Origin: Frankia alni
GTDB lineage: Bacteria; Actinomycetota; Actinomycetes; Frankiales; Frankiaceae
Assembly (NCBI GenBank): GCA_026225295.1
Contig: JAMFSN010000112.1
Span: 1 to 37,082, forward strand
DNA length: 37,082 nucleotides
Direction of reading: 5' to 3'
Shown: positions 1-10,960 of the stretch, in pieces
How positions within the stretch are numbered: the stretch's first letter is position 1
Layout of the letters: each line of letters begins with the position of its first letter
The notes under the pieces: generated by a model
What the model saw: only the letters and a program-made list of their open reading frames with translations
Database searches by the model: none
Told to the model about the DNA's origin: nothing
Program-made: the position numbers and the translations under genes

Positions 1-1092
1 CGCGGCCGGCGTACCGACCGATCGGTCGGCCGCGGCCTCATTCGCGGCGATTGGTGGTCGGACCTGCCGGTCGGCCGGGTCATACAGCTGGTCGGTACGG
101 ACGCGGTCCACCTGGATGGCGCGCTGGAACCGCTGCCGACCGCGGCTCCGGCCATCGTCACCTACCGCCCGCCCGCGCCGGTCACCTCCACCGCGGCGAT
201 CGCCCGGTTGCTCGACGCTCTCGACGCGGTCGCGATCAACCTGTTTCCGGCCTGGCTGCCCGGCGCCGCGGCACTCACCGGTGACGGGGCGGCGGCCGCG
301 CCGGCCCTCCGGGTGTTGGCCGCCCGGGCGGCCCTCGGGACCGGCGGCAGCGCCTCCTTCCTGGCCAGCCGGGCCGGCCGGGCCATGACCGGCCGGGCCG
401 ACCGGATCCACTTCGCCGACGAGGCCCGGGCCCTCGGCCTGACCCGAATGATCGCGACGAGCTACGACCGGGACACTTTCGTTCTCCTCCTCGAGGTCCC
501 GGCCGCGGTGACCGAGGAAGCGGGCCGGGCGCTGCTCGCCGCCTGCGAGTGGTTCGCGCACCATGGCCGGGCCGGCGTCTGGTTGACCGGGGCGGTTCCG
601 CCGAGCAGCGGCGAGCGGATCCGCACCGCTCATATTGATCTTCCCGCGTTGCCGGGCCCCGATCCGGAACCGGACGCCCCCGCGGAATCCGAGGTCACGT
701 ACTCGGCGATTGCCGGTCGACCCCACCCGGGGAGCGCCGCCGAGCAGGCCCTCGAGCGGGCCCTGGCGCCGATGCCGTGGGCGACCGGGCGGCTCTGGAA
801 CCAGACACACCGCTTCGGCCCGCTCGCACCGGTGATCCGAGTCGACCTCGGGTGGCCGGTTGAGCAGTGCGTCATCGAGATCGACGGTTCGGACCACCGA
901 CGACGTCAGAAATACGCCGACGACCGGCAGCGTGACCGACGGCTGACCGTCAACGGCTTCGCGGTGCTCCGCTTCACCAACGACGAGATCATGACCAACC
1001 TCGCCGCGGTGCTCCACGACATCCGGTGTTGTATCGAGCGACGGCGTAGTGAGGCAGCGGAAGGACGGACCCAGTGGCCAGCGAGACATTGA
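1..1092 (+). CDS. DUF559/Vsr-like PD-(D/E)XK nuclease, 5' end outside window
   Basis: The reading frame is open from base 1, so the start lies upstream; 363 residues are visible. The last ~110 residues match the DUF559 (very-short-patch-repair-like) endonuclease fold. Likely metal-binding residues are Asp282 (in VDLG) and Glu293/Asp295 (in IEIDGSDH, with His299), followed by a DDRQRDRRL helix and the closing VLRFTNDEI strand (window numbering). The preceding ~245 residues do not match a family I recognise; they contain plausible alternating strands and helices and an Ala/Gly-rich stretch. A Pro/Asp/Glu-rich linker near residues 217-235 separates the two parts. The gene overlaps the next by 19 bases, indicating one operon with the winged-helix and dual-ATPase genes. 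By family knowledge DUF559 proteins are DNA nucleases; a role as the cutting subunit of a defence-type complex is inference. Confidence 0.8.
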   Translation, partial: RGRRTDRSVGRGLIRGDWWSDLPVGRVIQLVGTDAVHLDGALEPLPTAAPAIVTYRPPAPVTSTAAIARLLDALDAVAINLFPAWLPGAAALTGDGAAAAPALRVLAARAALGTGGSASFLASRAGRAMTGRADRIHFADEARALGLTRMIATSYDRDTFVLLLEVPAAVTEEAGRALLAACEWFAHHGRAGVWLTGAVPPSSGERIRTAHIDLPALPGPDPEPDAPAESEVTYSAIAGRPHPGSAAEQALERALAPMPWATGRLWNQTHRFGPLAPVIRVDLGWPVEQCVIEIDGSDHRRRQKYADDRQRDRRLTVNGFAVLRFTNDEIMTNLAAVLHDIRCCIERRRSEAAEGRTQWPARH

Positions 1093-1790
1093 CCAACAGC
1101 GAGGTGGCGAGCCTGCTCGTCCTCATGGCCGAGGCTCGGGAGATAGCCAACCCGGAACTCAGGGCAACCTACGGACTCACTATCGACGGCCAGAGCCGGC
1201 TCAAGCTCAACAAGCTCAAACTGGTCGAGAGCAACAAACGGGGCCGGTCGTACGTGCACCTGTTGACCGATGGTGGCTGGGCCCGGTGCGCGGCGGAGTT
1301 CGGTTCGCCCGTTCCCTTGAACGGCCGGGCCAGCGCCGCCACCCAGGGCGCGCTGTACGCGATTCTGGCCAGCCTGCAACGGCATTTCCAACGGCACGAT
1401 CTCGTTCCCGCCGAGGTCTTCGAGCCGGCCCGCGACGAGGATGAGCCGAACGCGCCCACCATCGGCGAGACCCGGATCCGCGAAACGCCGGTCGACGGGA
1501 TCCTCGCGGGGGCCGGGAGCTCCTCGCCCGACGTGGAGGCGAAAATCCGCACGTCCTATCGGACTCTCGTCCGACGGCCCGGTGAATGGGTGGGGCTGGC
1601 CGCTTTGCGGCCCTCCCTCGGTGACGTTCCGCGGGCGGCCGTGGACGCCGCGCTCAAGCGTCTGGCCCGGATCCCGGGCATCAGCGTCGTGCCGGAGGAG
1701 AACCAGAAGATGCTCAGCGCCGCCGACCGGGCCGCCGCCGTCAACATCGGAAACCAGGCCAACCACTACCTGGCCATCGCGGACGCATGA
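1074..1790 (+). CDS. Uncharacterised protein with two apparent winged-helix segments
   Basis: 238 residues, GTG start at 1074 with a purine-rich GGAAGGACGG just upstream. The N-terminal segment (~residues 6-68, starting LTNSEVASLL and ending in an RGRSYVHLLTDGGW wing-like hairpin) looks like a winged helix. The C-terminal segment (~155-238, RRPGEWVGLAALRP then PRAAVDAALKRLARIPG and a VVPEENQK hairpin) looks like a second. The middle (~80-150) is a helix plus an acidic/Pro linker. No catalytic motif is visible. The gene starts inside the nuclease gene and its TGA overlaps the ATG of the dual ATPase by four bases, so all three are probably co-translated. A DNA-binding adaptor between nuclease and ATPase is inferred; I do not recognise a named family. 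Confidence 0.72.
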   Translation: MASETLTNSEVASLLVLMAEAREIANPELRATYGLTIDGQSRLKLNKLKLVESNKRGRSYVHLLTDGGWARCAAEFGSPVPLNGRASAATQGALYAILASLQRHFQRHDLVPAEVFEPARDEDEPNAPTIGETRIRETPVDGILAGAGSSSPDVEAKIRTSYRTLVRRPGEWVGLAALRPSLGDVPRAAVDAALKRLARIPGISVVPEENQKMLSAADRAAAVNIGNQANHYLAIADA

Positions 1791-4700
1791 GTGCCCACCC
1801 GACAACGGCAACGACCCCGCCACCGACCGACCCACCCGCGGTGAATCCCCGGGCGGCGGACCTGGCGGCGATGGCGTTCGGCGCGCTCCGGTTGGACTGG
1901 GCCGACACCCCGTACAACGTCTGGCACACCTCCCCCGTCCATATCGACGGCCTGCACGAGGGCGCAACCCGCCAGATTCTGCGGGGTATCGCGGACGCGG
2001 GTGGGGCGCCCGGCCCGAGCCCCCTCGGAATCGCCGTCCAGGGGCAGGCCGGGTCAGGCAAGACGCATCTGCTGGGTTGGACCCGCGAACAGATCCAACG
2101 CCGGGGCGGCTATTTCTTCCTGGTCGGTCCCCTGCACGCCGCCGATTTCTGGGGAAGTCTGCTCTCTTCGGTCATGGAAGATCTCGACCGTCCGATGGAC
2201 GGCGGCGAACCCCAGGTCATTTTTTTCCTGCGGAACCTCTGCGACCAGCTCGGCGTGACGGGCGCGACGGCGGCCGCCGTCACCGGCCGGGCGCCGCTCG
2301 GCCTCGGCCATGTCAAGGATCTGGTCGTCGCTCTGTACCGCTTCGACCGGTCCCTGGCCCGAGAATGCCAGGACACCCTGCGGGCCCTGATTTTCTACGG
2401 CGCGGCCGAGGACACCACGACCCAGGAGGTCGGGCGCTCGTACCTCTTGTCGATGCCGGAGTTCGAGCCGCACGAACGCGCCCATCTCGGAATGCGCGGG
2501 GAATCCAAGCCGGCCCGGCAGATCCTGCGGGAATTCTCCCGGCTGCTCGCCCTGACCGGTCCGAGCGTCATCGCGATCGACCAGATCGACACACTCGTGG
2601 CTGAGTCAACCGTCACCCTGGCCGGCGAAGGAGCATTGGACCGTCAGGTCACAGGCGCCTTCGACCAGGTCGCGGACGGCCTCCTCATGCTGCGGGACCT
2701 CACCAGCCGGACGCTGTGCATCCTGTCCTGTCTGCCGACCACCTGGGTCCTCATCGACCGGTACGCGGTGAAGGCGGTCGGGGACCGGTTCCGGGTGCTG
2801 GCCCCCCTGGAGCGGATCGGCTCCCCGGATCTCGGGCAGGCGTTGGTCGCCCGGCGCTTCGCCGCGCACTACGGCAAAATTGGCTTCACTCCGCCCTACC
2901 CGACCTGGCCCGTCGCGCCGTCCGCGCTTGCCGAGGCGGGCGACTTCATCCCCCGCGCCCTCCTGCAACGCATCGACCGGCACGTCGACTCGTGCCTGCT
3001 CACCGGCGCGTACACAGAACTGCGGCGCCTGACCGATGACCTGGGATCCGACCCCGTGGACGGCTTCAGCGACCCGCCGGTCGGTGAGCGGGTCGACCAG
3101 CCCCGCCACGCCGGACTCGACGACCTGTTCAACCGGTTGCACGCCGAAGCCCCCGGCGGCGACGCACTGACCGCCCAGAACGAAGACGCTGAGGCGCCGG
3201 CATTGCTGGCCGCGGCCCTCACCGCCTGGATCATCGAGCACGGCGGTCCCTACGAACAGGATCCCCGGCCGGGTCCCAAGCCCGCGTTGCACGCCCGCCT
3301 CCGCCACCTCGTCGACGAGTCGACCGGCGAGGAACGGCACTGGGCCTTCCGCACGATCCTGAGCGAACACCCGGTCGCGGCCTTGACCCGGTTGCGGCAC
3401 GCCGCCACCGCGGCCGGTATCGAAGGATCGGGCCGGGGTCGACGGTTGTTCCTCTTGCGCACTACGGCCTGGGGAAACGGGGCGAAGACGCGGGAAGCCG
3501 TGGCGGCTTTCGACGCGGCGGGCGGCGTGACGTTGGCCCTTGACGGAGACGATCTGAAGACGTTTGCCGCGCTCCGCACCATGCTCAGCCAGAAACCACC
3601 GGGCCTGCGCCCCTGGCTGAGCGACCGTCGGCCGGCCGGCCGGTCGCGGCTGCTGGCCCGGGCGCTCACCGACGCGGACCTGGCATCTCCGGCCGCGCCG
3701 CCGGGCCCGGCGGTGACAACCCGGCCATTGCACCCCGTCTCGCTGGCTGGGCCGTCTCCAGCGTCCCCGTCCGCCCCCGCGGACCTCCTCCCGGAAGCGG
3801 GCGCGCGATCCGAAACGGGCGGTACTGGGAGCGCGCCGGCCCCCGAGGCCTGGGACGAGCGCCGAATCCTGCTCGGTCGGCCGGCGGACGGTTCCTCGGC
3901 GCCGCCACTGACCGTGGACCTGGAGGCGCTGCGGCGGCACACGGCGATCTTCGCGGGCTCCGGGTCAGGCAAGACGGTCCTGATCCGTCGGCTGGTGGAG
4001 GAGTGCGCCCTGCGGGGCGTGTCGTCGATCGTTCTTGATCCGAACAACGACCTGGCCCGCCTGGGTGACGCCTGGCCGGAGCCGCCCGACGGATGGCGGC
4101 CGGGCGAAAGCGAGCGGGCCGCGAAATACCTGGCCGCTACCGACGTGGTGGTCTGGACCCCGCGATGGACCGGCGGACGCGCGCTGACGTTCCAACCGTT
4201 GCCGGACTTCCGGGGTGTCCGCGATGACCCCGATGAGTTTTCGGTCGCGATCCAGACCGCCGTGACCACGCTCGCGATCAAGGCCGGAATTGCCGGGACG
4301 GCCGGCAAGGCACCGATGGCCCGAGCGGTTCTGACCGAGGCGCTCACCCATTTCGGGCGCGGCAACCGCACGAGCCTCACCTCGTTCCTGGACCTTCTCG
4401 AGGAGCTGCCGGACGGAGTCAGCACGCTCAAGGACGCGGAAAAACTCGCGGCCAACATCGGGCAACAGCTGCGGGCCGCGATGGTCACCGATCCGCTGTT
4501 CGGCGGTCAGGGCGAGCCCGTCGATCCGGGCCTGCTCCTGACTCCCCCGACCGGGAAACGGGCCCGGGTATCGGTTATCAGCATGCTGGGTCTACCCGGG
4601 GACGAGCAGCGGCAGAGTTTCGTGAATCAGCTGCAGACGGCGCTGTTCGCCTGGGTCAAGAAGAACCCGGCCGGCGACCGCCCGCTCGGCGGGCTGTTCG

Positions 4701-5101
4701 TCATGGACGAAGCACAGACGCTGGCTCCATCCGGAGCAATGACCGCCTGCACCCAGAGCACATTGATGCTCGCCTCCCAGGCCCGCAAGTACGGACTGGG
4801 TCTGGTTTTCGCCACCCAGGCGCCGAAAGGATTGCACAACGGGATTCCCGGCAATGCCAACACCCAGTTCTTCGGCCGACTCAACAGTCCCGCCCAGATC
4901 GACGCCGCGAAGGGCATGGCGAAGGCCAAGGCCGGCGACGCGTCCGATATCGGCAAGCTGCGGATCGGGCAGTTTTACGCCGCCGGTGAGGGCTTCGCGT
5001 TCCAGAAGATCCAGACGCCGCTGTGTCTGACCCACCATCCGAAGAGCCCACTGACCGCCGAGGAGGTCGTGACCCGGGCTCGCGCTGGCCGATCCGCCTA
5101 G
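1787..5101 (+). CDS. Dual P-loop ATPase: AAA-like module fused to HerA/FtsK-like module
   Basis: 1104 residues. The first module (~1-420) has Walker A GQAGSGKT at residues 86-93 and Walker B ending VIAIDQID with Asp265, followed by a winged-helix-like section, typical of AAA/STAND-type ATPases. Residues ~430-690 are variable and end in an Ala/Pro-rich linker. The second module (~695-1104) has Walker A GSGSGKT at 724-730, an ILDPNND-like strand, Walker B FVMDEAQ with Asp974/Glu975, an LVFATQAPKG sensor and the conserved NTQFFGRLNSP segment. These mark the HerA/FtsK (DUF87/DUF853) DNA-pumping clade. The ATG overlaps the stop of the winged-helix gene (ATGA). HerA-like proteins typically form hexameric DNA translocases beside nucleases (e.g. 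HerA-NurA, DptH). Having AAA and HerA in one chain is unusual. Specific function unknown. Confidence 0.85.
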   Translation: MSAHPTTATTPPPTDPPAVNPRAADLAAMAFGALRLDWADTPYNVWHTSPVHIDGLHEGATRQILRGIADAGGAPGPSPLGIAVQGQAGSGKTHLLGWTREQIQRRGGYFFLVGPLHAADFWGSLLSSVMEDLDRPMDGGEPQVIFFLRNLCDQLGVTGATAAAVTGRAPLGLGHVKDLVVALYRFDRSLARECQDTLRALIFYGAAEDTTTQEVGRSYLLSMPEFEPHERAHLGMRGESKPARQILREFSRLLALTGPSVIAIDQIDTLVAESTVTLAGEGALDRQVTGAFDQVADGLLMLRDLTSRTLCILSCLPTTWVLIDRYAVKAVGDRFRVLAPLERIGSPDLGQALVARRFAAHYGKIGFTPPYPTWPVAPSALAEAGDFIPRALLQRIDRHVDSCLLTGAYTELRRLTDDLGSDPVDGFSDPPVGERVDQPRHAGLDDLFNRLHAEAPGGDALTAQNEDAEAPALLAAALTAWIIEHGGPYEQDPRPGPKPALHARLRHLVDESTGEERHWAFRTILSEHPVAALTRLRHAATAAGIEGSGRGRRLFLLRTTAWGNGAKTREAVAAFDAAGGVTLALDGDDLKTFAALRTMLSQKPPGLRPWLSDRRPAGRSRLLARALTDADLASPAAPPGPAVTTRPLHPVSLAGPSPASPSAPADLLPEAGARSETGGTGSAPAPEAWDERRILLGRPADGSSAPPLTVDLEALRRHTAIFAGSGSGKTVLIRRLVEECALRGVSSIVLDPNNDLARLGDAWPEPPDGWRPGESERAAKYLAATDVVVWTPRWTGGRALTFQPLPDFRGVRDDPDEFSVAIQTAVTTLAIKAGIAGTAGKAPMARAVLTEALTHFGRGNRTSLTSFLDLLEELPDGVSTLKDAEKLAANIGQQLRAAMVTDPLFGGQGEPVDPGLLLTPPTGKRARVSVISMLGLPGDEQRQSFVNQLQTALFAWVKKNPAGDRPLGGLFVMDEAQTLAPSGAMTACTQSTLMLASQARKYGLGLVFATQAPKGLHNGIPGNANTQFFGRLNSPAQIDAAKGMAKAKAGDASDIGKLRIGQFYAAGEGFAFQKIQTPLCLTHHPKSPLTAEEVVTRARAGRSA

Positions 5102-9431: not shown

Positions 9432-10960
9432 CCGTTCCCCCGACCGCGCCTGGACCGCCGCTGCTGGTCCGGCGGGCGGAACTCGACCACCACCGGGCCG
9501 GGCCGGCGCACGCCGGGGAACTCTCGGACGTGCGGACCGTGGGCGGGGTCGTCACCGAGATCTCGCCGGACCGGCTGCGTCCCGGTCCGGGTGAGATCGT
9601 GATCGACGCGGCCGGGGGCGCGCTCCTGCCGGGGCTGCACGACCACCACATCCACCTGCTGTCCCTGGCCGCCGAGGCGGCCTCGGTACCGGTCGGACCG
9701 CCCGCCGTCCACGATCGGGCCGGACTCGCCGAGGCGCTGCGGCGGGCCCCGGAGAGCGTCGGCGGCTGGGTGCGGGCCACCGGGTATCACCCGGCGGTGG
9801 CCGGCGAACTCGACCGGTACGCCCTCGACGCGCTCGTCCCCGACCGGCCGGTGCGCCTGCAGTACCGGACCGGTTCGCTGTGGGTCCTGAACTCCCGGGC
9901 GCTGGACCGGGCCGGGGTCCACGGCGGGCCCCGGCCCGACCAACCGGGGATCGAACGGGACGCGGCCGGGCACCCGACCGGCCGGCTGTGGCGGATGGAC
10001 GACTGGCTGGGCACGGTGGTGCCGCCGGTCGGGGTGGAGCTGGCCGCGGTGGGGCGGACCGCGGCCGCCGCCGGCCTCACCGGCTTCACCGACGCCACGC
10101 CGGGCCGGTCCCCGGCCGGGACCGCGACGCTGACCGCGGCCACGGCGACCGGCGCCCTACCGCAGCGACTGACTCTCCTGCGGCCCGAAGGTGGGGACGA
10201 CTCCCGGCGGCCGCCGCCGACGGACCGGGTCGGGTGGGGCCCGGTCAAGATCATGCTGGATGACACCGCGCTGCCGACCCCGGCCGGGCTCGCCGCCCGG
10301 ATCCGCGCCGCCCACCGCGCCGGGCACCCGGTCGCGGTGCACTGCGTGACCCGGATCCAGCTGGTGGTCACGCTGGCCGCCCTGACCGACGCGGGACCCG
10401 TTCGCGACCCCGCCGGCCCAGGGTCGGGGCGGCCCGCTCACCATGCCGGCCCGGACCGCATCGAGCACGGCGCGGTCGTGCCGCCCGAGCTGTATCCGGC
10501 TCTGCGCGACCTCGGGCTCGTCGTGGTCACCCAGCCGAATTTCATCGCCGAGCGGGGCGACCGGTATCTGGCCGACGTCCACGACGAGGACCCGGCGGCG
10601 CTCTACCCGGCGGCGGCGCTGCTGGACGCGGGCATCGGCCTGGCCGGCGGGACCGACGCCCCGTTCGGCCGTCCCGACCCGTGGGCGGCGGTCGCCGCGG
10701 CCGTCGAGCGGCGGACGGCCGGCGGGCGGGTGCTCGGTCCGGCCGAGCGACTGGCCGCCGACCAGGCCCTGGACCTGTTCCTCGGGGCCGCCGACGCACC
10801 CCACCGGCCCCGCCGGATCCGGGTCGGCGCGCCCGGCGACCTCTGCCTGCTGCGGGTGCCCCGGGCGGTCGCGCTCCGCGCGCCGTCCGCCGACCAGGTC
10901 GCGGCCACGGTCATCAACGGCCGGATTGTCCACGCCGCCGACGAGAACGAGCCCGGTTGA
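9428..10960 (+). CDS. YtcJ-like amidohydrolase (amidohydrolase family 3)
   Basis: 510 residues from the ATG at 9428, chosen because it overlaps the CoA-transferase stop (ATGA) and starts where the family does. Family landmarks are visible: GLHDHHIHLLSLA (HxH metal ligands), VRATGYHP, an aromatic-rich DRPVRLQYRTGSLWVLNSRAL region, VAVHCVT, DRIEHGAVV (second His) and GLAGGTDAPFG (catalytic Asp). The protein lacks a signal peptide, so it is cytoplasmic. It is probably a hydrolase of an amide or cyclic ring. Translational coupling to a CoA-transferase suggests that hydrolysis releases an acid that is then activated; this is inference. Confidence 0.83.
   Translation: MTVPPTAPGPPLLVRRAELDHHRAGPAHAGELSDVRTVGGVVTEISPDRLRPGPGEIVIDAAGGALLPGLHDHHIHLLSLAAEAASVPVGPPAVHDRAGLAEALRRAPESVGGWVRATGYHPAVAGELDRYALDALVPDRPVRLQYRTGSLWVLNSRALDRAGVHGGPRPDQPGIERDAAGHPTGRLWRMDDWLGTVVPPVGVELAAVGRTAAAAGLTGFTDATPGRSPAGTATLTAATATGALPQRLTLLRPEGGDDSRRPPPTDRVGWGPVKIMLDDTALPTPAGLAARIRAAHRAGHPVAVHCVTRIQLVVTLAALTDAGPVRDPAGPGSGRPAHHAGPDRIEHGAVVPPELYPALRDLGLVVVTQPNFIAERGDRYLADVHDEDPAALYPAAALLDAGIGLAGGTDAPFGRPDPWAAVAAAVERRTAGGRVLGPAERLAADQALDLFLGAADAPHRPRRIRVGAPGDLCLLRVPRAVALRAPSADQVAATVINGRIVHAADENEPG

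What the first reader, a model, noticed from the sequence alone, without database searches (positions are those of the whole stretch)
1..5101. Unnamed nuclease / winged-helix / dual-ATPase operon
Seen: a DUF559-type nuclease, a small two-winged-helix protein and a 1104-residue AAA plus HerA fusion, joined by 19- and 4-base overlaps. Known: HerA-like pumps and PD-(D/E)XK nucleases recur together in anti-phage and DNA-modification systems (e.g. DptFGH, HerA-NurA). Inference: a compact defence-type machine in which one chain carries both the sensor-like AAA and the translocase, the winged-helix protein recognises DNA, and DUF559 cuts. I cannot match it to a named system. More genes may lie left of the window.
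Basis: partly seen in the sequence, partly recalled or inferred. Interest (0 to 1): 0.78.

Follow-up and report, generated by a model that had tools for sequence, protein, structure and literature searches.

The report
Actinobacterial HerA core with swappable effector
This is a three-gene operon that looks like a phage- or plasmid-defence machine: two genes form a conserved DNA-sensing motor, and the third, here a DNA-cutting enzyme, is swapped in relatives for other toxic enzymes or is missing.

Summary
A DUF559 PD-(D/E)XK-type nuclease, a two-winged-helix protein and a 1104-residue AAA-HerA fusion lie head to tail with 19- and 4-base overlaps. The nuclease starts on a neighbouring contig, about 118 bases after a housekeeping gene, so the operon has three genes. 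Structure comparison puts the N-terminal ATPase in the Orc/Cdc6 clade; the C-terminus is a HerA translocase. Among 47 compact loci (Actinobacteria and two alphaproteobacteria) the winged-helix and AAA-HerA genes always pair, almost always overlapping by 4 or 1 bases. The upstream gene varies: DUF559 in 26, TIR/ParA-like proteins in 3, a STAND-like ATPase in 3, a DUF4365 nuclease pair (PADLOC candidate PDC-M02) in 2, and no recognisable effector in 13. In one genus the nuclease alone is present or absent between otherwise matching flanks. So the unit is a two-gene sensor/motor core with an exchangeable effector. It fits the published but untested class of 'HerA/FtsK capture' systems as a fused three-gene variant that I found under no name. 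Anti-invader defence is the best reading; nothing has been tested experimentally.

The parts
1..1092 (+). DUF559 PD-(D/E)XK-type nuclease, effector gene; 5' part lies on contig C207 (possible GTG start at C207:10610)
   Evidence: catalytic-type residues (D282, E293, D295, D308, R311, D312) invariant in 10 homologues; motif intact in 24 of 26
862..1029 (+). DUF559 (Vsr-like) domain within the nuclease
   Evidence: Pfam residues 288-343, 2.6e-12; PDB 3hrl endonuclease-like protein 4.4e-13 with the family profile
1074..1790 (+). double winged-helix protein, core sensor subunit, overlapping the nuclease by 19 bases
   Evidence: 4-base overlap with the next gene
1524..1787 (+). C-terminal winged-helix domain of that protein (motif E-NQK-L...A...H), shared with giant plasmid and phage-like proteins
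1787..5101 (+). AAA-HerA fusion ATPase, core motor
1856..3064 (+). N-terminal Orc/Cdc6-clade AAA+ domain; Walker A GQAGSGKTH; Walker B IAIDQID (Gln where Glu is usual, invariant)
   Evidence: VIA-align Z 15.3 to ORC/Cdc6 structures, 12.6 to BrxC; invariant DQ-D
3104..3688 (+). conserved middle domain, predicted alpha-beta-beta-beta-alpha-beta; possible inactive restriction-nuclease-like (iREase) domain
   Evidence: secondary structure of the AlphaFold2 model; no sequence match; identity unproven
3869..5086 (+). HerA/FtsK-family translocase domain; Walker A AGSGSGKT, Walker B MDEAQ
   Evidence: DUF87 7.7e-12; PADLOC mad8 3e-20; HerA structures

Best explanation
An anti-invader defence operon. 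The winged-helix protein and the AAA-HerA fusion form a conserved DNA-sensing motor. The winged helices and the Orc/Cdc6-like AAA domain would bind and size up invading DNA. The AAA domain carries an invariant Walker B glutamine, so it may hold ATP and act as a slow switch. The HerA domains assemble into a ring that translocates on dsDNA. Engagement recruits or switches on the effector encoded upstream; here that is the DUF559 nuclease, which then cuts DNA (the invader's, or everything, killing the cell). Because the core pairs with chemically different effectors (DUF559 or DUF4365 nuclease, TIR proteins, STAND ATPase), it probably transmits an activation signal and does not merely feed DNA into one nuclease. 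Shown here: gene order, domain content, conserved motifs, effector exchange. Inferred: DNA binding, ring formation, translocation, activation, cutting, phage or plasmid target.
For: Domain content. Universal pairing and translational coupling of the two core genes: overlap of 4 bases in 35 and 1 base in 10 of 46 measurable loci. Effector exchange at the same upstream position: TIR plus ParA-like/TIR/CATASP (PADLOC PDC-M28B 1e-27), DUF4365 plus partner (PDC-M02A 6e-69, PDC-M02B 1e-140), nSTAND3-like ATPase. Single-gene nuclease cassette gained or lost between flanks of 79-84% identity. Patchy distribution: 25 of 97, 19 of 100 and 2 of 100 genomes. No homologue of AAA-HerA in phage records or viral contigs. 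Walker motifs kept in 46-47 of 47 and the nuclease motif in 24 of 26. Precedent: HerA-DUF4297, where assembly raises nuclease activity about 300-fold (PMC11291478). A published comparative-genomic prediction of defence for Orc/Cdc6 + HerA + REase + wHTH systems (PMC10853773). One effectorless core lies next to a Trypco1/WD40 conflict-type locus (G168).
Against: No experiment. In the window's genome the neighbours are metabolic genes, not a defence island, although a tyrosine recombinase lies one gene upstream. Thirteen loci keep the core with no recognisable effector at the upstream position, and in genus g10 some sit at conserved chromosomal sites, so the core may do something without an effector. 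Enrichment in defence islands was not measured. The AlphaFold2 model of AAA-HerA is of modest confidence (mean pLDDT 69).
Confidence: 0.68

Rival explanations
1. A DNA end-processing or repair machine analogous to archaeal HerA-NurA: the HerA ring pumps DNA ends to the DUF559 nuclease, with the winged-helix protein as a loader.
For: HerA plus a nuclease in one operon; conserved chromosomal sites of the core in genus g10; closest solved fold of the HerA part is SsoHerA.
Against: Patchy distribution within genera; the nuclease is exchanged for TIR, STAND or DUF4365 genes, which a repair nuclease should not be; no match to NurA.
Confidence: 0.12
2. A restriction system that reads DNA modification: the winged-helix protein discriminates modified from unmodified DNA and DUF559 cuts one of them.
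For: wHTH plus HerA plus REase resembles DndFGH and the Mad8-containing MADS, which act beside modification genes (PMC10853773; PADLOC mad8 3e-20).
Against: No DNA methylase or phosphorothioation gene was seen beside the operon in the window or its neighbouring contig, nor in the annotated Tsukamurella locus; TIR versions would not need DNA cutting.
Confidence: 0.1
3. A domesticated mobile-element or plasmid function (DNA transfer, partition or exclusion), carried as cargo and not as defence.
For: The C-terminal winged-helix domain also occurs in giant proteins of actinobacterial plasmids and a phage; a tyrosine recombinase is near the operon.
Against: No relaxase or transfer genes were identified beside it; most loci are chromosomal; effector exchange with TIR and PDC-M02 genes is typical of defence.
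Confidence: 0.1

Closest known systems
HerA/FtsK capture systems of the Orc/Cdc6 class (Rakesh, Aravind and Krishnan 2024, PMC10853773)
   Same: Orc/Cdc6-clade AAA, HerA/FtsK ATPase, separate REase-type nuclease, multi-winged-helix protein; the paper says the domains occur in various fusions and predicts anti-invader function; related Orc/Cdc6 proteins there are fused to TIR or STAND domains
   Different: The paper's main text does not mention DUF559 or, in the sections read, this three-gene layout; its active REases are of two families not named as DUF559; the inactive REase insert is not confirmed here; exchange of effectors on one orthologous core is not described in the sections read
HerA-DUF4297 and HerA-SIR2 (Nezha) defence systems
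   Same: A HerA ATPase with a PD-(D/E)XK or NADase effector in one operon; HerA complex activates its partner
   Different: There HerA is free-standing, with no Orc/Cdc6 AAA fusion and no winged-helix partner; the effector families differ
DndFGH (DptFGH)
   Same: HerA domain, REase domain, several wHTH domains, a P-loop partner
   Different: DndH carries SNF2, TRD, inactive methylase and REase domains on the HerA chain; the present protein has an Orc/Cdc6 AAA instead and a separate nuclease
MADS (PADLOC mad8)
   Same: Best PADLOC match of the HerA domain is mad8 (3e-20)
   Different: Only the HerA-type domain matches; no other mads gene matched among the three proteins and no methylase was seen beside the operon
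BREX and BREX-related capture systems (PMC12839542)
   Same: The AAA domain resembles BrxC (Z 12.6); BRC systems join HerA to BREX-like parts
   Different: No PglZ, BrxX methylase, DUF6079 or DUF4007 among the three genes

Membership tests
HerA/FtsK capture system, Orc/Cdc6 class | Orc/Cdc6-clade AAA+ ATPase | tested here: met
   Residues 24-426 align best to ORC/Cdc6 structures, Z 15.3 (7jgr, 1w5t), and to TnsC and BrxC
HerA/FtsK capture system, Orc/Cdc6 class | HerA/FtsK ATPase domain | tested here: met
   DUF87 7.7e-12; HerA 4d2i 3.9e-9 by profile; Walker A, DEAQ motif
HerA/FtsK capture system, Orc/Cdc6 class | active REase-type nuclease in the operon | tested here: met
   DUF559 with conserved catalytic-type residues; activity itself not tested; absent or replaced in 21 of 47 loci
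HerA/FtsK capture system, Orc/Cdc6 class | protein with 2-4 winged-helix domains (in a subset) | tested here: met
   Two winged-helix domains predicted; relatedness to DndG/SspB not shown
HerA/FtsK capture system, Orc/Cdc6 class | inactive REase domain between AAA and the C-terminal wHTH of the Orc protein | tested here: inconclusive
   Residues 466-602 have a predicted alpha-beta-beta-beta-alpha-beta order but no sequence match; not folded or searched alone
HerA/FtsK capture system, Orc/Cdc6 class | HerA domain falls in published clades 2, 4 or 5 | not tested
   The published alignment was not available
DndFGH | DndH chain with SNF2, TRD, inactive methylase, REase and HerA domains | tested here: not met
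   Pfam finds only AAA and HerA-type domains; nuclease is a separate gene
MADS | multi-gene set that includes a DNA methylase | tested here: not met
   No methylase among the operon genes or the Pfam-scanned immediate neighbours; only mad8 matches
HerA-NurA / HerA-DUF4297 / HerA-SIR2 | partner is NurA, DUF4297 or SIR2 | tested here: not met
   The upstream gene is DUF559; no such match in Pfam, PADLOC or NCBIfam
BREX | PglZ and BrxC | tested here: not met
   No PglZ match among the three proteins
Anti-phage defence system (function) | protects against phage or other invading DNA | not testable with these tools
   Needs phage or plasmid challenge

The most novel reading that the evidence does not exclude
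A modular immune platform not yet named: one winged-helix plus Orc/Cdc6-AAA-HerA sensor-motor whose engagement with invading DNA triggers interchangeable killers (DNA nucleases of two families, TIR proteins, STAND ATPases), so that a DNA pump works as a general alarm switch and not as a feeder for one nuclease.
Probability: 0.35. Interest if true: 0.78.

Novelty: new variant of a known kind. Interest (0 to 1): 0.58.

Why it matters
HerA rings are known in defence with two kinds of partner, but how a DNA pump turns on a killer is not settled. Here one orthologous core is coupled to nucleases, TIR proteins or STAND ATPases, which makes the question testable: swap effectors on one core and ask which signal passes. 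It would also give an experimental entry to the predicted Orc/Cdc6-HerA 'capture' systems in actinobacteria, for which I found no experiment in the papers held here.

Tried and rejected
PADLOC, NCBIfam and PHROGs scans of the three proteins: no named system; mad8 only for the HerA domain. Viral contigs and phage records: no AAA-HerA homologue. Literature searches for DUF559 with HerA and for KGGVGR with TIR: none. Profile comparison of the middle domain with the DUF559 domain: no similarity; Pfam and PDB sequence searches of it: nothing convincing. Considered and dropped: reading the Tsukamurella locus as an insertion that disrupts a ribosomal operon. The trio lies between rpsQ and rplN, but that S10/spc gap naturally holds other genes in Mycobacteriales (own knowledge). 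A larger census failed: several genome-search runs gave no answer, so frequencies rest on about 298 genomes, most of them chosen by kinship. A DNA pattern search of the own genome used a mistyped pattern and is void.

Full report
What is there. The window starts inside a gene. Frame +1 (1-1092) ends in a DUF559 domain (Pfam 2.6e-12). It overlaps a 238-residue protein (1074-1790) by 19 bases, which overlaps a 1104-residue protein (1787-5101) by 4 bases. The first 127 bases of the window are identical to the last 127 bases of contig C207 of the same genome, the mark of neighbouring contigs in an assembly graph. On C207 the nuclease frame runs back to a GTG at 10610; before it lies monomeric isocitrate dehydrogenase, ending at 10492. 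The true nuclease start is uncertain. Downstream come an amidohydrolase, a MarR regulator and CoA-type enzymes, which look unrelated. So the operon has three genes if the contig joint is right.

The proteins. The nuclease keeps the DUF559/Vsr-like pattern D...ExDG..H...D..RD..L...G..VLR; the key residues are invariant in 10 homologues and the pattern is intact in 24 of 26. Its family profile finds the solved endonuclease-like protein 3hrl at 4.4e-13. The second protein is predicted as two winged-helix domains joined by a poorly ordered linker; Foldseek finds mostly winged-helix regulators, with weak E-values. The third protein has an N-terminal AAA+ domain whose best structural matches are ORC and Cdc6 (Z up to 15.3), then TnsC and BrxC. 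Its C-terminal domain is HerA. The AAA Walker B reads DQID in place of the usual DE, and the DQ-D pattern was found in 47 of 47 homologues, so this ATPase may bind more than it hydrolyses; that is inference. Between the two lies a conserved domain with a predicted alpha-beta-beta-beta-alpha-beta order, which could be an inactive restriction-nuclease fold. Sequence searches did not support or exclude this.

Conservation. Homologues came from named genomes, plasmids and genomes chosen by kinship. In 47 compact loci the winged-helix gene sits directly before AAA-HerA; the two overlap by 4 bases in 35 and by 1 base in 10 of 46 measurable cases. The same order occurs in two alphaproteobacteria, Methylobacterium and a Hyphomonadaceae genome. 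The core is patchy: 25 of 97 relatives (22 of 35 in the own family, counted), 19 of 100 relatives of another carrier, and 2 of 100 genomes drawn across the phylum, one of them the window's own.

Effector exchange. The gene upstream of the winged-helix gene differs. DUF559 is present in 26 of 47. Three Amycolatopsis loci have a TIR protein and a ParA-like/TIR/CATASP protein (PADLOC PDC-M28B), with a SEFIR-NPCBM gene on the other strand. Three loci have a STAND-like ATPase; the Paractinoplanes copy and the one in the window's own family share 41% identity. Two loci have a DUF4365 protein and a partner, which match PADLOC's candidate pair PDC-M02A/M02B at 6e-69 and 1e-140; DUF4365 is a nuclease domain of short-Argonaute systems (PMC10810196). 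Thirteen loci have no recognisable effector there. On the AAA-HerA tree the labels need 8 changes, against 18.9 for shuffled labels: effectors cluster but have changed repeatedly. In genus g10, G149 and G129 share flanks and core at 79-84% identity, but about 940 bases holding the nuclease in one are about 57 bases in the other. A second pair (G136/G122) shows the same. Whether these are gains or losses was not settled.

Mechanism. The best reading is a defence module: winged helices and the Orc/Cdc6 AAA recognise and hold DNA, HerA translocates, and the effector is switched on. HerA-DUF4297 is the closest mechanistic precedent: assembly with HerA raises nuclease activity about 300-fold (PMC11291478). 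That effectors of different chemistry share one core argues for transmitted activation over direct feeding of DNA; this step is inference. No DNA-modification gene was seen beside the operon, so self/non-self discrimination would rest on DNA structure, replication state or another invader feature; unknown.

Known kinds. Rakesh, Aravind and Krishnan (PMC10853773) describe 'HerA/FtsK capture' systems built of Orc/Cdc6 AAA, HerA, active REase, inactive REase and winged-helix proteins in various fusions, and predict anti-invader function. The present operon meets four of these features, one is inconclusive, and the clade placement was not tested. DUF559 is not mentioned in that paper's main text. 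I file it as a variant of that kind. It is not DndFGH, MADS, BREX or HerA-NurA by the features tested.

Limits. The census is small and mostly chosen by kinship, effector calls rest on profile matches, 'no effector' means none recognised by the profiles used, the AAA-HerA model is of modest confidence, and there is no experiment.

Noticed in passing
window:1524-1787; L111:5971-6240; L112:2971-3252; L113:2971-3273; L114:1501-1863: The C-terminal winged-helix domain (E-NQK-L...A...H motif) also occurs in giant proteins of actinobacterial plasmids (a methylase/SNF2-like protein of Rhodococcus fascians; a giant protein next to a phage portal gene in Thermobispora, matched at four places in that plasmid) and, more weakly, in a tape measure protein of Gordonia phage Mollymur (29% identity, 1e-7). 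Defence sensor and invader proteins share a DNA-binding-type domain.
   Followed up: partly
L054:9846-14294 (-), L069, L070, L071, L072, L073, L074: A long AAA-HerA variant (about 1430-1750 aa) with a 270-620-residue insert of no recognised family between AAA and HerA and a shortened HerA domain, beside Ser/Thr-kinase-like genes in one genus of the window's family.
   Followed up: partly
L054:4504-14294: A compact trio sits directly beside a long AAA-HerA variant in one genome (G014).
   Followed up: no
L065:9384-12854: A TIR domain (8.5e-27) in one frame with a truncated AAA part beside a HerA frame (G013), probably a broken or rearranged fusion.
   Followed up: no
L094:8694-13065: An effectorless core (G168) lies beside a Trypco1 gene and a WD40-repeat protein with a possible trypsin-like start, the kind of genes described as prokaryotic conflict systems.
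   Followed up: partly
L005:5871-8075: A tyrosine recombinase (Phage_integrase 1.8e-11) lies one gene upstream of the operon, before the isocitrate dehydrogenase gene.
   Followed up: no
L018:7508-13228: In Tsukamurella the trio and a VapBC-type pair lie between the S10 and spc ribosomal operons.
   Followed up: no
L010:139-6194 and L017:98-6384: A conserved run of minus-strand genes (about 500, 608 and 657 aa, one with an AAA_23 match) lies divergently beside the trio in two Winogradskya species.
   Followed up: no
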